A stretch of 64,000 bases of DNA. It comes from Halorubrum sp. DM2. GTDB lineage: Archaea > Halobacteriota > Halobacteria > Halobacteriales > Haloferacaceae. Position numbers and translations under genes: made by a program. The DNA lies in assembly GCF_901686465.1 (NCBI RefSeq), contig NZ_LR594487.1:840894-904893 (forward strand). The letters are read 5' to 3'. The notes beneath the pieces were generated by a model, which saw nothing but the letters and a program-made list of their open reading frames with translations, was not told where the DNA came from and ran no database searches. Position 1 is the first letter of the stretch; every line of letters begins with the position of its first letter. Positions 8,405 through 39,488 of this stretch are shown one piece after another.

Positions 8405-8632
8405 ATGACCGAGTTCGACGTTCACGACCACCGCCACGAGCTGAAACAGCTCCGCGACGCGGGCGCGACGAGCCTCTGGGAGAATCGCGAGGAGATGGAC
8501 TGTCCGGTGTGCGATGACGCCTTCTCGCGGCTGTTCGTCACCGAGCAGCCGGGAACGACGTTCCCTGAGAACGACGGCGCGCGGTTCTGTCTGCTGCGCG
8601 GCGGCGACGCGGTGTACCTGTTCAGGCACTGA
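8405..8632 (+). CDS. Small CPxC zinc-motif protein
   Basis: 75-residue protein with the core LWENREEMDCPVCDDAF: a CPVC knuckle that looks like half of a zinc ribbon, followed by FSRLFVTE and a short C-terminus FCLLRGGDAVYLFRH whose cysteine may complete the site. Similar small haloarchaeal proteins have been labelled flagella-cluster proteins, but no archaellum gene is present here, so that name is not used. The gene is GC-rich like the chromosome and marks the left side of the AT-rich island that follows. Confidence 0.7.
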   Translation: MTEFDVHDHRHELKQLRDAGATSLWENREEMDCPVCDDAFSRLFVTEQPGTTFPENDGARFCLLRGGDAVYLFRH

Positions 8633-8910
8633 GCACACAGGTGATCGGGCTACGGTACGTCGAGTCCGTGAATTCCCTCCTTCAGACTCCCTCTCGTCGA
8701 AACGGTTGGCCGGCTAGGGTACGTCGTGACTGGCACCAAGCCAGAACACATAATATACGAAGGATTTCAGCAGGCCAAACAAGAATTGATCAGAAGGAGA
8801 GGGTTTCAGCAGAATATGAAAATGAATGTCTCAGCGGGGATTACACACGAGGTAGTAGCACGTTGGAAATTAGGCCACTGATGTAAACCTGAAAGAGACC
8901 AGACCTACGA
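8633..8910. other. Left part of AT-rich island, no certain gene
   Basis: Base composition drops sharply after about 8740. The only reading frame worth noting is the 51-codon GTG-started frame at 8726-8881. No tRNA, inverted terminal repeat or integrase fragment was seen. Confidence 0.5.
8726..8881 (+). CDS. Possible small ORF or gene remnant in the AT-rich island
   Basis: A 51-residue frame opens with GTG. It ends AGITHEVVARWKLGH and looks like the tail of a larger helical protein rather than random translation. Charged residues are balanced rather than strongly acidic, unlike chromosomal neighbours. I recognise no family. It may be the surviving 3' end of a lost accessory gene, or a small standalone gene. 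Confidence 0.25.
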   Translation: MTGTKPEHIIYEGFQQAKQELIRRRGFQQNMKMNVSAGITHEVVARWKLGH

Positions 8911-9444
8911 TCAGATAGGTCCGAACAGCAAAACTGATCCCGAGGTTCTGCGGCCACTCCGATCTAGCTCGTCGAAACACCACTCTTCAACTATGCTGGT
9001 GAGATACTGGCAGAGGTTTACCATGGTCCGGTAGCGTCCCCACCGATACCTGAGGTGTGGGTCTGTCTCAATTTTCAGAAGCCAGGAGTAGACTGGTTCA
9101 CATTCGTCGAGTGCCTTCATTATCATTGCCTGTTCTCGTGTATGTGTGTCGTCATTGACCTCGCTGAACGGGATATACTGGTCGAATACATCTCGTTCCT
9201 CCAGTATCTCTGCACTCTCTTTTTCAATTGTGAGCCTAAAATTCGCCTCTATCGCGTTCTCGCACAGTTCTATTAACGTGTTCGTGTACTCTCCGACTCG
9301 TACTGATTCGCGTTCTTCTATTCGTTCGATAATACGGTTGTCGAAGGCCTCAAATGTAGTATCTAGATACCGCTGTCGCCACGAGTATTCGACACCGACG
9401 GCACAACCGAAGAGACGTTCCCGAAGTGAGGCTTCCGTAGTCAT
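8911..9444 (-). CDS. Orphan hypothetical protein in AT-rich island
   Basis: 177-residue, mostly helical, soluble protein with no membrane segment or recognisable motif. Codon use is AT-rich, clearly different from the genes on either side, which suggests recent acquisition. A TTTTAATC element about 25 nt upstream of the ATG (positions 9467-9474) is a good TATA box, so the gene is probably expressed as a leaderless transcript. The C-terminal half has several tryptophan and tyrosine residues (YSWLLKIETDPHLRYRWGRY). I recognise no family; a role in an accessory or defence function would be a guess. Confidence 0.65.
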   Translation of the reverse strand: MTTEASLRERLFGCAVGVEYSWRQRYLDTTFEAFDNRIIERIEERESVRVGEYTNTLIELCENAIEANFRLTIEKESAEILEERDVFDQYIPFSEVNDDTHTREQAMIMKALDECEPVYSWLLKIETDPHLRYRWGRYRTMVNLCQYLTSIVEEWCFDELDRSGRRTSGSVLLFGPI

Positions 9445-9594
9445 TTCTCGATTCTCAATTTCTGATTAAAATTAGTGTGGACGTGAATTTATTTGTTGTG
9501 TCGGCCACCCACCAGTTCCTTCTTTCCGTACACTGTCCTGAGTGCGATCGAGCCGAAATACACCACTTACCGCTGATCTCGACGAATCCGGGCG

Positions 9595-26068: not shown

Positions 26069-27439
26069 ATGCGAACGCTCGTCTTCGACGGTCGGACCGG
26101 TGCCGCCGGCGACATGATCTGCGCCGCGCTGATCGCGGCCGGAGCCGACCCCGACGCCCTCGCCCCTGTGACCGATCGGCTCCCGGTCCGGTACGAGGTC
26201 GGAGAGACGACAAAAAACGGGATCCGGGCGACCACCGTCGACGTGTTCGTCGACGACGACCACTCCCACGGCGACACTGGCGAGTACTCTCACGACCACG
26301 CTGACGACCACTCCCACGGCGACACTGACGGTCACCCCCACGACCACTCCCACGACCACGCCGACGCCGATCACACACACGCCGAAGGGGCCGGCGTCCG
26401 CCGGAGCTACTTGGAGGTGGTCGACCTCGTCGAGTCGATGGACCTCCCCGCCGCGGTCGAGTCGACCGCGCTCGACGCCTTCGAACTGCTCGGCCGCGCG
26501 GAGGCGTCGGTCCACGGCACCGACCTCGACGAGACGCACTTCCACGAGGTGGGCGCGGACGACGCGATCGCAGACGTGGTCGGCGCGGCGCTGCTGCTCG
26601 CCGACCTCGACCCGGAGCGCGTGGTCACGACCCCGGTCGCCGCCGGCGGCGGCACGGTCGAGATGAGCCACGGGACGTACCCCGTCCCGGCACCCGCGAC
26701 GACGGAGATCGCGACCCGTGCCGGCTTCCGGATCGTCGGCGGTCCGATCGACCGCGAACTGCTGACGCCGACCGGTGCGGCGATCCTCGGCGCGGTCGCC
26801 GATGGCGTCGACGCGGTGCCGGATATTTCGGTCGAACACGCGGGCTACGGGGCCGGCGACGCCGACTTCGAGCGCCATCCGAACGTCCTCCGCGCGCTCG
26901 TCGGCGACGGCGGCAGAGCGGGAGACGGAAGCGAGGCGGACCGTGCGGACTCCGCGGAGGGGAAACTCGTCCACGACGACATCGCCGTTCTGGAGACGAA
27001 CCTCGACGACGCCGCACCCGAGGTCCTCGGCGGGCTTCAGGAGACCCTCTCGCGCGCCGGCGCGCGAGACGTGACGATCGTTCCGACGACGATGAAGAAG
27101 TCGCGGCCCGGGCACCTCGTGAAGGTGATCTGTAAGCCCGACGACGCGGCGGCGGTCGCCGAGCGCCTCGCCCGCGAGACCGGGACGCTCGGGGTGCGCC
27201 AGTCCGGCGCGAGCCACCGCTGGATCGCCGAGCGCGAGTTCGAGACGGCGACGCTCCGCGTCGACGGCGCGGCCCACGAGGTGGCCGTCAAGGTCGCCTC
27301 GACGACTGAGGGCGACGTGTACGACGTCAGCGGGGAGTACGACGACGCGGTCGCGGTCGCGGAGGCGACCGGCCTCCCCATCCGAGAAGTGCTTCGGCGG
27401 GCCGAGAGCGTCGTTCGGGAGCGGCTGGGCGACGAGTAG
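26069..27439 (+). CDS. larC: Nickel insertase LarC
   Basis: 456-residue protein of the LarC family, which uses CTP to insert nickel into the pyridinium dithiocarboxylate pincer cofactor of lactate racemase-type enzymes. The N-terminus RTLVFDGRTGAAGDMICAALIAAGAD and the HFHEVGADDAIADVVGAALLL segment are characteristic. Between them, residues about 68-110 form a histidine/aspartate-rich insertion (HSHGDTGEYSHDHADDHSHG) likely to bind nickel. No larA, larB or larE is adjacent. TATTTG about 30 nt upstream is a weak TATA element. Confidence 0.9.
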   Translation: MRTLVFDGRTGAAGDMICAALIAAGADPDALAPVTDRLPVRYEVGETTKNGIRATTVDVFVDDDHSHGDTGEYSHDHADDHSHGDTDGHPHDHSHDHADADHTHAEGAGVRRSYLEVVDLVESMDLPAAVESTALDAFELLGRAEASVHGTDLDETHFHEVGADDAIADVVGAALLLADLDPERVVTTPVAAGGGTVEMSHGTYPVPAPATTEIATRAGFRIVGGPIDRELLTPTGAAILGAVADGVDAVPDISVEHAGYGAGDADFERHPNVLRALVGDGGRAGDGSEADRADSAEGKLVHDDIAVLETNLDDAAPEVLGGLQETLSRAGARDVTIVPTTMKKSRPGHLVKVICKPDDAAAVAERLARETGTLGVRQSGASHRWIAEREFETATLRVDGAAHEVAVKVASTTEGDVYDVSGEYDDAVAVAEATGLPIREVLRRAESVVRERLGDE

Positions 27440-33676: not shown

Positions 33677-33709
33677 ATGTCGACTCCCCACGGGCGGCGG
33701 AAACGATGA
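33677..33709 (+). CDS. Possible 10-residue leader peptide overlapping the KaiC-like gene start
   Basis: ATG, nine codons and TGA encode MSTPHGRRKR. The stop overlaps the next start as ATGA at 33706-33709. A TTTCAAG element about 25-30 nt before 33677 could direct a leaderless transcript that begins with this frame. Coding is plausible but unproved. Confidence 0.3.
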   Translation: MSTPHGRRKR

Positions 33710-35244
33710 GCGAGGAGGACGACTGGTTCGAGCGCGCGCTGCGCGAGACCGACGAGGAGTCCGACGAGCGGCCGGTGGGTGGCCCGGAGACCGACGACGG
33801 CGACGAGGAGGAGCCGGAGTCGGACGCTCCAGTAGATGGTGCCGATAGCGCGGAGACCGACGACGGCGTCGCGGAACACGGACCCGACGCCGAGAGCGTC
33901 CCCGACGATCCGGCGAGAGAGATCGGGATCGGAAGCGACGACGAGGGCGACGGCGACCCGTTCGGTGAGGGCGATGCGAGCGACGATGATCCGTTCGGTG
34001 GCTCCGACGCGGAGGGGACCGATATCTTCGGCGGCAACGAGTCACTCGAAAGCGATCCCCCCGACGGCGACGACGCGGGATCCGAGCCCCCGCTCGATCC
34101 CGCGGCTGACGACCCTGCGGACGGCGGCGTTCCCGCGGGGGCGTTCGGCGACGTGGACGCCGACGCCGACGAAGGTCAGTTCGACTCCTTCGGCGGCGAC
34201 GACTCATTCGGTGGCGACGATCCCTTCGGCGGCGGTGACGCCGGTGTCGACGCGGAGAGCGGTGCGGGCGGCGAAAGCGGTGGGGGCGTCGACACGGACC
34301 CGTTCGGCGAGGACGACCCCTTCGGCGGGAGCCGAGCCGGCAGGTCCGACAGCGGATCGGGCGGCGCAGGCGGCGGAGAGTCGCCGGGCGGTGGCGGCGC
34401 TGACGCCGGTAGCGACCCCTTCGGCGGCTATCGCGGGTCCGCGGCCCGGGGCAACGACGAGTTCGGGTTCGACGACTTCGGCGGGGGCGACGCCGGACCG
34501 GGGGAGGCGACCGGCTTCGACGTCGATCCCGACGAGTTCGAGTCGGGGATCGACCGGACCGACATCGGGATCGAGGGGCTCGACGACATGATCCTCGGCG
34601 GGGTCCCCAGCCGGTCGCTGTTGTCGGTCATCGGCGGTGCCGGGACCGGGAAGACGACGTTCGCGCTCCAGTTCCTGAACCACGCCCTCGAAACGGGGGA
34701 CAAGGGGATCTACATCACCCTCGAACAGACCCGCGAGTCGATATACGACACGGCCGACGAGAAGGGGTGGTCGTTCCGCGAACACGCGGACGAGGACCGC
34801 CTCGCGGTCGTCGCCATCGACCCCATCGAGATGGCCAACTCGCTGTCGTCGATCCGCAACGACCTCGTCCGGCTCATCGCCGAGTTCGACGCGGACCGGC
34901 TGGTACTCGACTCCGTCTCCCTACTCGAAATGATGTACGATCACCCCGCGAAGCGCCGCTCCGAGGTGTTCGGGTTCACGCGCTCGCTGAAGGAGGCGGG
35001 CGTGACGACGCTTCTCACCTCCGAGGCGAGCGAACAGAACCCGTACGCCTCCCGTCACGGAATCGTCGAGTACCTCACGGACGCCGTCTTCGTCCTCCAG
35101 TACATCCGCGGATCGGACTTCCGCGAGACGCGGCTGGCCGTCGAGATCCAGAAGATCCGCGACGCGAACCACTCCCGCGAGACGAAGCCGTACGACATCA
35201 CCGACACCGGCATCTCGGTGTACGACCAGGCGAACATCTTCTGA
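33706..35244 (+). CDS. KaiC/RadA-like RecA-superfamily ATPase with acidic repeat N-terminus
   Basis: 512-residue protein. Residues 1-275 are low-complexity, very acidic and contain at least eight DPFGG/DxFGG motifs. The C-terminal 240 residues are a KaiC-type RecA fold with Walker A GGAGTGKT at 310-317, catalytic region FALQFLNHALETGDKGIYITLEQ and Walker B RLVLDSVS near 398-404. Haloarchaea have several such single-domain KaiC-like ATPases, often in signalling or archaellum contexts. The last 25 codons are repeated at 37513-37587, on the far side of a KAP-NTPase insert, so the present 3' end may have been supplied by the insert. A 10-codon frame overlaps its start. Confidence 0.85.
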   Translation: MSEEDDWFERALRETDEESDERPVGGPETDDGDEEEPESDAPVDGADSAETDDGVAEHGPDAESVPDDPAREIGIGSDDEGDGDPFGEGDASDDDPFGGSDAEGTDIFGGNESLESDPPDGDDAGSEPPLDPAADDPADGGVPAGAFGDVDADADEGQFDSFGGDDSFGGDDPFGGGDAGVDAESGAGGESGGGVDTDPFGEDDPFGGSRAGRSDSGSGGAGGGESPGGGGADAGSDPFGGYRGSAARGNDEFGFDDFGGGDAGPGEATGFDVDPDEFESGIDRTDIGIEGLDDMILGGVPSRSLLSVIGGAGTGKTTFALQFLNHALETGDKGIYITLEQTRESIYDTADEKGWSFREHADEDRLAVVAIDPIEMANSLSSIRNDLVRLIAEFDADRLVLDSVSLLEMMYDHPAKRRSEVFGFTRSLKEAGVTTLLTSEASEQNPYASRHGIVEYLTDAVFVLQYIRGSDFRETRLAVEIQKIRDANHSRETKPYDITDTGISVYDQANIF

Positions 35245-35245
35245 C
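35171..35245. repeat. 75-bp repeat copy 1, 3' end of KaiC-like gene (att-like)
   Basis: It comprises the final 24 codons plus stop and the following base. It matches 37513-37587 at 72 of 75 positions; all three differences are silent third positions (Gly, Ser, Asp). Confidence 0.85.
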
Positions 35246-35330
35246 GCGGCACGATCAATATACCCGTCCGAGAATCGCACCGTTCGCAGGGAATAGAATT
35301 TTTTGTTATCTGTTTGTACTCTCCACAAGC

Positions 35331-37331
35331 ATGAGCGAATCTGGGGGAACAAGTAGACGCGACGAGTACTATGGAAGTCCGGATCTACCTACTACCGAAG
35401 ATGACCTCGGATTCAGATCATATGTGAATGCTGTGATGAAATTTCTCACTCATGACGACACCGAACCACCCCTCACTATCTCTGTTGAAGGCGATTGGGG
35501 ATCAGGGAAGTCATCGTTCCTGCTCCAACTAGAAGATGCGCTCCGGGAGAAAGACCACCATACGGTACAATTTAATCCATGGCAACACGACAAAGAAGAG
35601 CAGCTGTGGGCGGTGTTTGCCATTCAGTTTTTTGATCAGCTAACCCAACAACTATCTGCCACACAGCGTTGGAAAGGTCATATTAAACTGTACCTTAGAC
35701 GTACAGACTGGAACAGCAGCTGGATCTCCATAATCCAAAATGTTCTACTCGGTCTCCTTGCTTTCATTGTAACAATTGCTGTCCCGCTACTGGTTGTTGT
35801 GTTGGGGTTAGAACTATCAGAATCTCTGAACATTATTAGAGATTCTAACTTAGCAGATGTATTTAAAGGGGTTGTATACTCCGGAAGTGTTCTGTTATTT
35901 TTAACCGGTATAACTTCTATCTGGATCCGCATCAGGAACGAACTGGGCGCAGGGATACGGAGAGGAATCTCACAACACGTTAATTCACCCGATTACTCAA
36001 ACCGAATCCCATTTGTTGAGAGCTTTCATGACGATTTCGAGAACATCGTTAATGCCTATTCTGGAGATAAACCTGTTTTCGTATTTATAGATGACTTAGA
36101 CCGTTGTGAGAATCAGAAAGCAGCTGAATTGATGGAAGGTATAAATGCGCTGGTCTCTGTGGAAACGTCTATCTTCTTTATTGTAGCAATGGATAGAGAT
36201 AAAGTTGCGGCTAGTGTAGCTAAAAAGCATCAGGACCCAGTAGAAAGTGAAAGAAATATAGTTGACAATAAAACAGATCAGCAAAATCCAGATATCACGT
36301 ATGGGAACAAATATTTACAAAAGTTTATACAAATTTCGTTTCAGGTCCCCAGTCCTTCAAAACAGAACGTGGAAGATTTCGTTGAGTCCCTTGTTCATAC
36401 AGAATCTTCCCAAACCAAAAGTGAAACTGTAGACTGGCATAAAAATACGGAGGCGCTCAATAATTTTCATGATAAACTAACTGAAATGTCAAGTTTATTA
36501 TCAAAAAGACTAGATTATAACCCGAGAGATATCAAAAAATTTGTGAACACCTATCGTTTTCAAACGCTTCTCGCCAAAGAACGCGGTATCATCGATCGGA
36601 ATAGAGGAGTCGGTGTTGGAATAACTGTCGAGCAACTTGGGAAGTTTGTCGCATTGAGTCTACAGAAGCCACAGTTTGTGTCCGATCTATCTCACAGACC
36701 CAAAGATCTGAATTACCTACAGGAATACGCACTCGATGATTCTGATAACCAAGATCTTGGTGAAAAATTATCAGATTCGACAAGAGACTGGAAACACGAT
36801 CAGGAACTAATCTCTCTACTGAACATCGGATGTGATGGTTTGACACCAGATCCGTATAGTTTTGAGAACGCAAATGTTGAGTTCCTGCTCCAGATCTCAC
36901 CCGAGTCAGATCTCACCCTTCCAGACGAACGAAGGGTTACGGTCAGAATATTAGAACCAGTCGGTGAAATATTTGGAACAGATGAACGGGTGTACAAGTT
37001 GCGAAAATCTCAGATGGTCTCCCTACCCGCTACGAACGCAATACCGCTTGTTGAGCGTGGTGCAGCAGAAATACCCAAATTCGATCAAGAGCAACCGTCA
37101 GACATCTCGGTAAATGTGGAGGATTTGGAGGAGTCAAAACCAAATATATCCTCAGGTCCTGCGGATGAACAAGTACGAGTTACTATCGAAATGATTGAGA
37201 ACTATCCAGAGAAAATATTCGGAATTGATGGGCAAGAGTATCGTGTTGAACGGAATGATGTTCTGACACTTCCGGTTCCGGACGCAATTCCGCTAATACA
37301 GAGGGGATTTGCGAAGCGTTTAAACTCGTGA
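35331..37331 (+). CDS. KAP-family P-loop NTPase with membrane helices and duplicated C-terminal modules
   Basis: 666-residue protein. Walker A GDWGSGKSS is at residues 54-62 and Walker B VFIDDLDRC at 251-259. The sensor-like FIVAMDRD and the NPRDIKKFVN motif (397-406) define the KAP family. Between the Walker motifs lie two hydrophobic segments (about 131-160 and 180-198), as in membrane KAP NTPases such as PifA. The C-terminus has two related modules at about 535-580 and 615-662, each with the pattern I-F-G-x-D ... V-x-L-P-x-x-x-A-I-P-L-x-x-R-G-x-A; they resemble the archaeal Gins51 B domain. AT-rich codon use marks it as acquired. TATA-like TTTTTTGTTATC lies 25-30 nt upstream. A phage-exclusion role is inferred only. 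Confidence 0.85.
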   Translation: MSESGGTSRRDEYYGSPDLPTTEDDLGFRSYVNAVMKFLTHDDTEPPLTISVEGDWGSGKSSFLLQLEDALREKDHHTVQFNPWQHDKEEQLWAVFAIQFFDQLTQQLSATQRWKGHIKLYLRRTDWNSSWISIIQNVLLGLLAFIVTIAVPLLVVVLGLELSESLNIIRDSNLADVFKGVVYSGSVLLFLTGITSIWIRIRNELGAGIRRGISQHVNSPDYSNRIPFVESFHDDFENIVNAYSGDKPVFVFIDDLDRCENQKAAELMEGINALVSVETSIFFIVAMDRDKVAASVAKKHQDPVESERNIVDNKTDQQNPDITYGNKYLQKFIQISFQVPSPSKQNVEDFVESLVHTESSQTKSETVDWHKNTEALNNFHDKLTEMSSLLSKRLDYNPRDIKKFVNTYRFQTLLAKERGIIDRNRGVGVGITVEQLGKFVALSLQKPQFVSDLSHRPKDLNYLQEYALDDSDNQDLGEKLSDSTRDWKHDQELISLLNIGCDGLTPDPYSFENANVEFLLQISPESDLTLPDERRVTVRILEPVGEIFGTDERVYKLRKSQMVSLPATNAIPLVERGAAEIPKFDQEQPSDISVNVEDLEESKPNISSGPADEQVRVTIEMIENYPEKIFGIDGQEYRVERNDVLTLPVPDAIPLIQRGFAKRLNS

Positions 37332-37493
37332 TCTGCTGCTGACTAACTCTCAACTCTGTCTTACAACATTCATATAATGGGTTAATTGGATTTGTCGGGG
37401 ATGTATAACCTAGATTAAGCAGAGTGAGACAAGTTTCATTTGCTGAATATGACGTGGACCGTCCGATTCGATTTTGTCATTTTGTCAAAAATC
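37332..37493. other. AT-rich tail of the insert, no gene seen
   Basis: Non-coding AT-rich sequence between the KAP gene stop and the second repeat copy. No integrase or recognisable attachment core outside the repeat. Confidence 0.5.
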
Positions 37494-37586
37494 ATGGCCG
37501 TCTACACAGATAACTCCCGCGAGACGAAGCCGTACGACATCACCGACACCGGTATCTCCGTGTACGATCAGGCGAACATCTTCTGA
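37494..37586 (+). pseudogene. Displaced 3' end of the KaiC-like gene (30-codon fragment)
   Basis: ATG GCC GTC TAC ACA GAT leads in frame into the repeated tail NSRETKPYDITDTGISVYDQ and ends at TGA 37584-37586. It has no ATPase domain. The most economical reading is that it is the original end of the gene, separated when the insert arrived. The reading frame is intact, and the differences from the working copy are only silent, so separation was recent or the piece came from a related strain. Confidence 0.75.
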
Positions 37587-37587
37587 C
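37513..37587. repeat. 75-bp repeat copy 2 (att-like)
   Basis: Matches 35171-35245 with three silent substitutions; directly followed by GC-rich chromosomal sequence. Confidence 0.85.
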
Positions 37588-37666
37588 CGGCGGGGCCGAC
37601 GCCGAAGGCGACGGAACCCCCGCGACACACGACAAGCTTCATTTCTCGCCCACCGGTGTGTCGGGT

Positions 37667-37990
37667 ATGACTGCGCCGTAGGTCACCACCGGACTGGCTT
37701 CGAAGTACGTCGGCCTCCCCGCACAGATCGCCGAGTTCCTCGTCGTCGCCGCCGCGCTGTACCTCCCCGGGCGGTACGTCGTCAGGCCGCTCGTCAGTTG
37801 GGTGTTCGACCGCCGAGCCCTCGCTCCGACCCTCGAACGGACGGTCGAGAAGCTGATCGGCGTCGGCACCTTCGTGATCGCGCTAGTCGTCGCGGCGTGG
37901 GTCGCGGGCTTTACCGCGCTGTCTGTGACCGCGCTTCGCACCACCGGCTTCGGAGCTGAATCTGGCGCTCGCCCGACGGGACATCGCTGT
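37667..37990 (+). pseudogene. Degraded membrane-protein gene, MscS-like N-terminus
   Basis: ATG at 37667 is followed by TAG at codon 5 (37679-37681), but the same frame stays open and encodes YVGLPAQIAEFLVVAAALYL, GRYVVRPLVSWV, and TFVIALVVAAWVAGFTALS, two hydrophobic helices in an arrangement like the start of haloarchaeal MscS channels. It then shifts into unrelated frame before the histidine kinase. Nothing of the channel pore domain remains. The assignment to MscS is tentative, but breakage is clear from the early stop. Confidence 0.45.
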
Positions 37991-39114: not shown

Positions 39115-39165
39115 TTCGGGCCACGAGTCGACTCGCTCGGAGTCGTTCGCTGCGCGCGATTAATA

Positions 39166-39230
39166 GGGCTCAATTCCGTGGGATACCTGCGGCTCGCGAG
39201 TTGCTCGCCGCAGGTATGCACCGTCCGGGA
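39166..39230. repeat. 65-bp direct repeat, copy A
   Basis: Matches 39367-39431 at 64 of 65 positions, 201 bp apart. It contains an 11-bp-stem hairpin (ATACCTGCGGC/GCCGCAGGTAT) and ends in 14 bp of the tRNA-Gly 3' end. Confidence 0.85.
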
Positions 39231-39282
39231 GTCCCGTGAGTGAAGCGAACGGGACAACGGACGGGGCACGAACGAAGTGAAG

Positions 39283-39304
39283 TGCACCGTCCGGGAATTG
39301 AACC
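39283..39304 (-). repeat. 22-bp fragment of the tRNA-Gly 3' end
   Basis: Identical to 39418-39439 of the intact tRNA (discriminator, acceptor strand and T arm part). This looks like an attachment-site scar. Confidence 0.75.
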
Positions 39305-39366
39305 GGAGGAAGACGGTCCGGGCATGCGGCCTCGCTTCGCTCGGCCGTTCCGGGCTGCGGCTTCCA

Positions 39367-39431
39367 GGGTTCAATTCCGTGGGATACCTGCGGCTCGCGA
39401 GTTGCTCGCCGCAGGTATGCACCGTCCGGGA
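39367..39431. repeat. 65-bp direct repeat, copy B
   Basis: Overlaps the intact tRNA-Gly 3' end. The hairpin arms are 39384-39394 and 39408-39418, directly at the tRNA 3' terminus, and could end transcription. Confidence 0.85.
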
Positions 39432-39488
39432 ATTGAACCCGGGCTATTAGCTTGGGAAGCTAATGTCCTACCACTGGACCAACGGTGC
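39418..39488 (-). tRNA. tRNA-Gly (anticodon CCC)
   Basis: 71-nt cloverleaf on the minus strand. The acceptor strands GCACCGT and ACGGTGC pair fully, and the anticodon loop TTCCCAA sits between TTAGC and GCTAA, giving anticodon CCC for GGG codons. The T arm CCGGG-TTCAATT-CCCGG is perfect, and no CCA is encoded. No intron. Three partial copies of its 3' end lie downstream. Confidence 0.92.

What the first reader, a model, noticed from the sequence alone, without database searches (positions are those of the whole stretch)
35171..37587. Insert that rebuilt the 3' end of a KaiC-like ATPase gene
The last 24 codons plus stop of the KaiC-like gene (35171-35245) recur at 37513-37587. They match 72/75 positions, and all three mismatches are silent. 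Between them lies 2.27 kb of AT-rich DNA with a KAP NTPase gene. The repeated piece is in frame on both sides, so the insert appears to have brought a functional replacement for the gene end, as some integrative islands do. No integrase is present, so mobilisation in trans, a remnant, or homologous recombination are all possible.
Basis: partly seen in the sequence, partly recalled or inferred. Interest (0 to 1): 0.82.

Follow-up and report, generated by a model that had tools for sequence, protein, structure and literature searches.

The report
Single-gene insert behind a KaiC gene
A salt-loving archaeon has acquired one foreign gene right behind a core gene, leaving two copies of that core gene's tail, and the acquired gene makes an NTPase of a defence-associated family that carries two copies of a piece of the cell's own DNA-copying machinery, which would be new if it works as a docking module.

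Summary
In detail: 35171-35245 and 37513-37587 match 72/75, with three silent differences. The 2.27-kb insert between them (GC 0.43 against 0.67 for the window) holds one gene. Among 392 sampled Halobacteria genomes, 301 carry this KaiC tail and only this one carries it twice. Five Halorubrum-group genomes show the empty site: with the insert removed, the flanks align without a break. So an insert did arrive and the KaiC end is duplicated.

How it arrived is less certain. The upstream tail resembles another species (G039) from about 35034, 137 bp before the repeat begins, while the gene body groups with the sister species. No other genome reuses the site and no virus contig carries the tail. 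That favours homologous recombination anchored in KaiC with a non-homologous right joint over an integrase crossover inside the 75 bp. Support is moderate (AU p 0.066); an integrase acting in trans is not excluded.

The unexpected part is the cargo: a KAP P-loop NTPase (QatA-like by sequence, RdrA-like by fold) with two C-terminal Gins51 B domains, the first 61% identical to the host's Gins51. None of about 80 KAP relatives has them. In Thermococcus this domain binds GAN/Cdc45, so the protein may dock on the replisome (inferred).

The parts
33706..35244 (+). KaiC-like ATPase gene (512 aa), core gene of Halobacteria, family TIGR03880 KaiC_arch_3
   Evidence: NCBIfam 2.1e-88 above cut-off; Pfam KaiC 2.9e-51; tail found in 301 of 392 Halobacteria genomes
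35034..35245 (+). 3' stretch of KaiC that resembles G039 rather than the sister species; candidate donor-derived tract
   Evidence: mismatches G039 8, G046 19, G015 25; tree joins it with G039 at 98/91
35171..35245 (+). repeat copy 1, the working end of KaiC
35246..37512 (.). AT-rich insert, GC 0.426, one gene, no integrase
35331..37331 (+). KAP-family P-loop NTPase gene, 666 aa
   Evidence: Pfam KAP_NTPase 134.9 bits, cut-off 20; PADLOC PDC-S20 1.8e-32 and QatA 2.5e-31
35490..35516 (+). Walker A, GDWGSGKSS
   Evidence: sequence
35715..35837 (+). long hydrophobic stretch inside the P-loop domain, likely membrane helix; a second weaker peak near aa 181
   Evidence: hydropathy up to 2.97; helices in the model
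36084..36107 (+). Walker B, FIDDLDRC
   Evidence: sequence
36939..37070 (+). first Gins51 B domain (aa 537-580)
   Evidence: 61% identical to own Gins51 over 44 aa; profile of haloarchaeal Gins51 i-Evalue 1.4e-17; keeps all 18 columns invariant
37212..37322 (+). second Gins51 B domain (aa 628-664)
   Evidence: i-Evalue 2.8e-9
37513..37587 (+). repeat copy 2, displaced KaiC tail joined to the native flank
37588..37916 (+). native flank, including the start of a decayed mscS-like gene (ATG 37667, stop at its 5th codon)
   Evidence: joined flanks align without a break in five relatives; intact neighbour in G031 is MscS

Best explanation
A linear piece of DNA from another haloarchaeon, holding the last 210 or more bases of its own KaiC gene followed by an AT-rich KAP gene, recombined with this genome. 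Its left end paired with KaiC and replaced the tail from about 35034 on. The resident tail (75 bp) was pushed downstream and still sits against its old neighbour, the mscS remnant. KaiC stayed whole throughout. The cargo is most likely a stand-alone defence NTPase of the KAP group whose two Gins51 B domains let it bind the replisome, through GAN/Cdc45, the partner of that domain in Gins51. Shown: the insertion, the duplication, the empty site, the domain identities. Supported but not proven: the one-sided homologous route. Inferred: defence role and replisome docking.
For: Empty site: flanks without the insert align over 674 bp with no break in G047, G031, G045 and G024, and over 509 bp in G004. 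Unique duplication: 1 of 52 Halorubrum genomes, 1 of 170 family genomes, 1 of 392 order genomes. Donor tract: 35034-35245 has 8 mismatches to G039 and 19-25 to the three sisters, the most G039-like of 651 windows over 19.5 kb; two alleles, 35035C and 35104A, are shared only with G039 among 14 close relatives; trees put the tail with G039 (98/91) and the body with the sisters (89/73). The downstream copy is 97% identical to G046 and 95% to G039, the upstream copy 95% and 99%. Cargo. Parallel case in Vibrio cholerae: PMC5361080.
Against: The AU test does not quite reject the tail grouping with the sisters (p 0.066-0.081). Similar G039-like patches exist elsewhere, for example 26271-26344, so a chance overlap has roughly a 5% probability by my estimate. 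The direction of exchange with G039 is not fixed. No genome with KaiC followed by this KAP gene was found, so there is no donor. One-sided illegitimate recombination is rare where it has been measured (PMC5361080). No defence or replisome test exists for this protein.
Confidence: 0.5

Rival explanations
1. Site-specific integration: the islet is a small non-autonomous integrative element (CIME-like) whose attP mimics the KaiC tail; a tyrosine recombinase supplied in trans inserted it and the repeats are attL and attR.
For: A sharp 75-bp repeat of a gene 3' end around foreign DNA is the usual look of such elements; archaeal integrases do use 3' ends of protein genes (14 of 68 thaumarchaeal elements, PMC6563490; PMC8371274). 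The genome has about seven tyrosine recombinase loci. A KAP relative in a Methanosarcina MAG (L111) sits in a 4.7-kb islet without integrase between 53-bp repeats of a tRNA-Val 3' end.
Against: No second KaiC tail in any other sampled genome although the target is a core gene; no short repeat of the tail within 13 kb in 38 relatives apart from chance-level matches; no viral contig carries it. The donor-like stretch extends 137 bp beyond the repeat. No arm-type repeats found near the ends.
Confidence: 0.33
2. Campbell-type insertion: a circular molecule carrying 75 bp of KaiC tail integrated by ordinary homologous recombination.
For: Gives the same two repeats with no recombinase needed (inference from the anatomy).
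Against: 75 bp is short for this, and it does not explain the donor-like stretch upstream of the repeat.
Confidence: 0.1
3. Local duplication of the KaiC tail followed by separate capture of the KAP gene between the copies.
For: None specific.
Against: Needs two events; the copies belong to different haplotypes, as expected of two sources rather than of a tandem duplication.
Confidence: 0.07

Closest known systems
Displaced gene ends after homology-anchored insertion in Vibrio cholerae T6SS clusters (PMC5361080)
   Same: Homology on the upstream side, non-homologous joint on the other, resident 3' piece pushed downstream and kept as an orphan
   Different: There it recurs and builds arrays at one kind of locus; here a single event behind a core KaiC gene, with a defence-type gene
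CIME and other att-flanked elements without integrase; archaeal elements in 3' ends of protein genes (PMC6563490, PMC5704250)
   Same: Direct repeats of a gene 3' end around foreign DNA, gene end restored
   Different: No related element or recombinase at this site; donor-like sequence outside the repeat
QatA of the Qat anti-phage system
   Same: KAP NTPase with extra C-terminal region; PADLOC 2.5e-31, NCBIfam 117 bits
   Different: Far below the QatA cut-off of 600 bits; no qatBCD genes beside it; C-terminus is two Gins51 B domains
RdrA of RADAR
   Same: Best fold match of the KAP core, Foldseek E 3.2e-4, probability 1.00
   Different: TM-score only 0.27, 12% identity, no RdrB
Gins51 and the PriS C-terminal domain (PMC2861644)
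   Same: The B domain, 61% identical to the host Gins51
   Different: No helical A domain; fused in tandem to an NTPase; codons AT-rich (GC3 0.39 against 1.00 in the host gene)

Membership tests
KAP NTPase (PF07693) | Match over the curated cut-off with Walker A and B and inserted hydrophobic helices | tested here: met
   134.9 bits against 20; motifs and hydropathy
Qat system | QatA over the NCBIfam equivalog cut-off | tested here: not met
   117.2 bits, cut-off 600
Qat system | qatB, qatC and qatD beside it | tested here: not met
   The insert holds one gene; neighbours are KaiC and the mscS remnant
RADAR | RdrA over cut-off with RdrB | tested here: not met
   15.1 bits, cut-off 600; no second gene
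Gins51 C-terminal (B) domain, PF22090 | Match to the domain profile | tested here: met
   Pfam 24.3 bits, just under its cut-off of 27; profile of haloarchaeal Gins51 domains gathered here 1.4e-17 and 2.8e-9
Gins51 C-terminal (B) domain, PF22090 | Fold of the isolated domain | tested here: inconclusive
   Model pLDDT 71; no PDB fold match
Gins51 C-terminal (B) domain, PF22090 | Binding to GAN/Cdc45 | not testable with these tools
   Known for Thermococcus Gins51 (PMC5484177)
att-flanked integrative element / CIME | Direct repeats of the target end on both sides, empty site in relatives | tested here: met
att-flanked integrative element / CIME | Same site used by related elements or by an element with the cognate recombinase | tested here: not met
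   No second tail in any other genome that was searched
att-flanked integrative element / CIME | Foreign sequence confined to the interval between crossovers in the repeats | tested here: inconclusive
   Donor-like tract starts 137 bp outside the repeat, AU p 0.066
att-flanked integrative element / CIME | Excision as a circle | not testable with these tools
   Needs PCR or reads
Homology-anchored illegitimate insertion | Donor tract in the homologous anchor on one side only | tested here: inconclusive
Homology-anchored illegitimate insertion | Non-homologous joint on the other side with the resident piece retained | tested here: met
   Homology starts abruptly at 37513 inside KaiC; upstream 181 bp has no match in the genus
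Homology-anchored illegitimate insertion | A donor genome with KaiC followed by KAP | tested here: not met
   KAP relatives in 6 other genomes of 392, only distantly related (best 40%); five were read with their surroundings and none follows KaiC

The most novel reading that the evidence does not exclude
A KAP-family immune NTPase that carries two copies of the B domain of the cell's own GINS complex and so sits on the replisome through GAN/Cdc45, where it could sense or stop forks taken over by viruses or plasmids. This would be an immune protein that uses a copied part of the replicative helicase as its anchor.
Probability: 0.3. Interest if true: 0.75.

Novelty: new variant of a known kind. 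Interest (0 to 1): 0.5.

Why it matters
The insertion shows how a single accessory gene can be added behind a core gene without breaking it and without a recombinase of its own, and the mosaic of alleles around it offers a way to tell homologous from site-specific gain in archaea. The cargo matters more: a KAP NTPase joined to Gins51 B domains suggests that a defence-type protein reads the replication machinery directly. That can be tested in haloarchaeal genetics with standard tools.

Tried and rejected
KaiC tail as a virus-borne att site: two pattern scans of viral contigs found nothing. KAP in viral contigs: no relative. Short hidden repeats of the tail downstream of KaiC in 38 relatives: nothing above 13-15 matching bases. 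Hairpin or arm-type repeats at the insert ends: none; the 75-bp DNA folds no better than shuffles. Repeats around about 70 other KAP genes as a sign of shared mobility: only the Methanosarcina tRNA-Val islet looks like an att pair; the others look like interspersed repeats. Insert tail 37332-37512 in other genomes: no match. Recent capture of the B domain from this host: rejected, DNA identity 54.5% with AT-rich codons. Fold of the isolated B domain: model too weak for a fold match. Qat or RADAR membership: rejected.
Full report
WHAT IS THERE. The two repeats exist at the stated coordinates, 35171-35245 and 37513-37587, with 72 of 75 positions equal. The three differences fall on third codon positions and are silent. 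The repeat is 23 whole sense codons plus two bases of a 24th, the stop and one base. The interval 35246-37512 has GC 0.426 in a window of 0.670 and holds a single long gene, 35331-37331, a KAP NTPase (Pfam 4.3e-39). The KaiC gene belongs to TIGR03880 and is above that family's cut-off.

IT IS AN INSERTION. A DNA search in 52 Halorubrum-group genomes found one copy of the tail in 50, none in one and two only here. The 28-residue tail was found in 157 of 170 family genomes and 301 of 392 order genomes; only this genome has two. Joining the flanks without the insert gives a 674-bp stretch that aligns without a break in G047, G031, G045 and G024 (82-85%) and over 509 bp in G004. In these genomes KaiC is followed by the same neighbour, which in G031 is an MscS channel gene. 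Here only its start remains, with a stop at the fifth codon. So the downstream copy sits at the native neighbour and the insert lies between the KaiC body and its old end.

WHICH TAIL IS FOREIGN. Over 34501-35000 the window groups with G046, G015 and G033 (support 89/73), which are also its nearest relatives over about 19 kb upstream. From 35034 to 35245 it groups with G039 (98/91). In this stretch it has 8 mismatches to G039 against 19, 25 and 19 to the three sisters, and it shares two alleles, 35035C and 35104A, with G039 alone among 14 close relatives. This is the most G039-like of 651 windows in 19.5 kb. Other patches of the same strength exist, for example 26271-26344, and the AU test gives 0.066, so the support is moderate. 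The downstream copy is nearer to the sister G046 (97%) than to G039 (95%), the upstream copy the reverse (95% and 99%). Together this says that the upstream tail came with the incoming DNA and that the incoming homology reached at least 137 bp further upstream than the repeat.

MECHANISM. A crossover inside a 75-bp att site leaves no donor sequence outside it. A linear donor piece that pairs with KaiC on its left and is joined without homology on its right explains the long donor tract, the sharp start of the second copy inside KaiC, and the retained resident tail. The same logic has been proposed for displaced immunity genes in Vibrio cholerae (PMC5361080), where it is described as rare. The integrase reading remains open: archaeal elements do use 3' ends of protein genes (14 of 68 in Thaumarchaeota, PMC6563490), this genome has about seven tyrosine recombinase loci, and a KAP relative in a Methanosarcina MAG lies in a 4.7-kb islet without integrase between 53-bp repeats of a tRNA-Val end. 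Against it stand the lack of any reuse of the site and the lack of the tail in viral contigs. By contrast the tRNA-Gly gene next door is used: integrase genes sit beside it in G033 and G009, and G045 has a near-identical one.

THE LOCUS. The interval between KaiC and tRNA-Gly is a variable slot in the genus. In G037 a type IIG restriction-modification gene starts 88 bp after KaiC with no second tail.

THE CARGO. The protein has intact Walker A and B motifs and a long hydrophobic stretch within the P-loop domain. By profile it is closest to PDC-S20 and QatA, but it is far under the QatA cut-off and has no qat partners. The fold model of the core is closest to RdrA of RADAR (Foldseek E 3.2e-4, TM 0.27). 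QatA itself binds DNA and forms rings of seven or eight (PMC13279940). Relatives of 30-40% identity are scattered over Halobacteria, Methanosarcina, cyanobacteria and other bacteria, as expected of a mobile defence gene.

THE GINS51 DOMAINS. A weak own-genome hit of the C-terminus led to Gins51, next to primase. Residues 537-580 are 61% identical to the host Gins51 B domain (E 7.8e-17), keep all 18 invariant columns of a small alignment, and score 1.4e-17 with a profile of haloarchaeal Gins51 domains gathered here; residues 628-664 score 2.8e-9. None of about 80 loci with KAP relatives has the domain at E 0.1. In 50 of 52 Halorubrum genomes the domain is found, and this KAP gene is the only second near-full-length hit. 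The coding DNA is AT-rich (GC3 0.39) and 54.5% identical to the host gene, so it was not copied recently from this host. In Thermococcus this domain binds the GAN nuclease, the Cdc45 counterpart (PMC5484177), and PriS has a related domain (PMC2861644). Docking on the replisome is therefore a reasonable inference, not a result. Other accessory haloarchaeal proteins also carry the domain, so it may be a general docking module.

LIMITS. Genomes searched are one per species, so other strains of this species were not seen. No donor was found. The structure model does not resolve the C-terminus and the isolated domain model gave no fold match. No experiment bears on function.

VERDICT. The insertion is a new instance of a known kind of event, most likely homology-anchored rather than integrase-made. 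The gene it brought is a new domain combination, as far as the searched collections show, and is the part worth following.

Noticed in passing
window 39165-39488 and L052, L054, L067, L073: tRNA-Gly(CCC) beside KaiC is an integration site in the genus: partial copies of its 3' end in the window, integrase genes next to it in G033, G009 and G045.
   Followed up: partly
L052:1210-5088: G037 carries a type IIG restriction-modification gene directly after KaiC, without a second KaiC tail.
   Followed up: partly
L111:796-5540: Methanosarcina MAG: a 4.7-kb islet with a KAP gene fused to pentapeptide repeats and a pentapeptide protein, no integrase, between 53-bp repeats of a tRNA-Val 3' end.
   Followed up: partly
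L266:1-1680, L268:130-1827, L262:1414-3150: Other haloarchaeal proteins of unknown family carry a Gins51 B domain at the N- or C-terminus; one has a weak MCM/helicase match. The domain may be a docking module of accessory replication proteins.
   Followed up: partly
L256:2462-5358 (Salinibaculum sp. KK48 plasmid): A Gins51-like gene on a plasmid next to a DpdA-like gene and a NucS-like gene, possibly tied to DNA modification.
   Followed up: no
window 37667-37966: mscS-like channel gene reduced to its first third with a stop at codon 5; intact in G031.
   Followed up: yes
window 8500-9500: A second AT-rich patch (GC about 0.51) with a small gene (8911-9444, minus strand).
   Followed up: no
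window 26271-26344: Another short stretch where the window is G039-like against its sister species, a sign of recombination.
   Followed up: no
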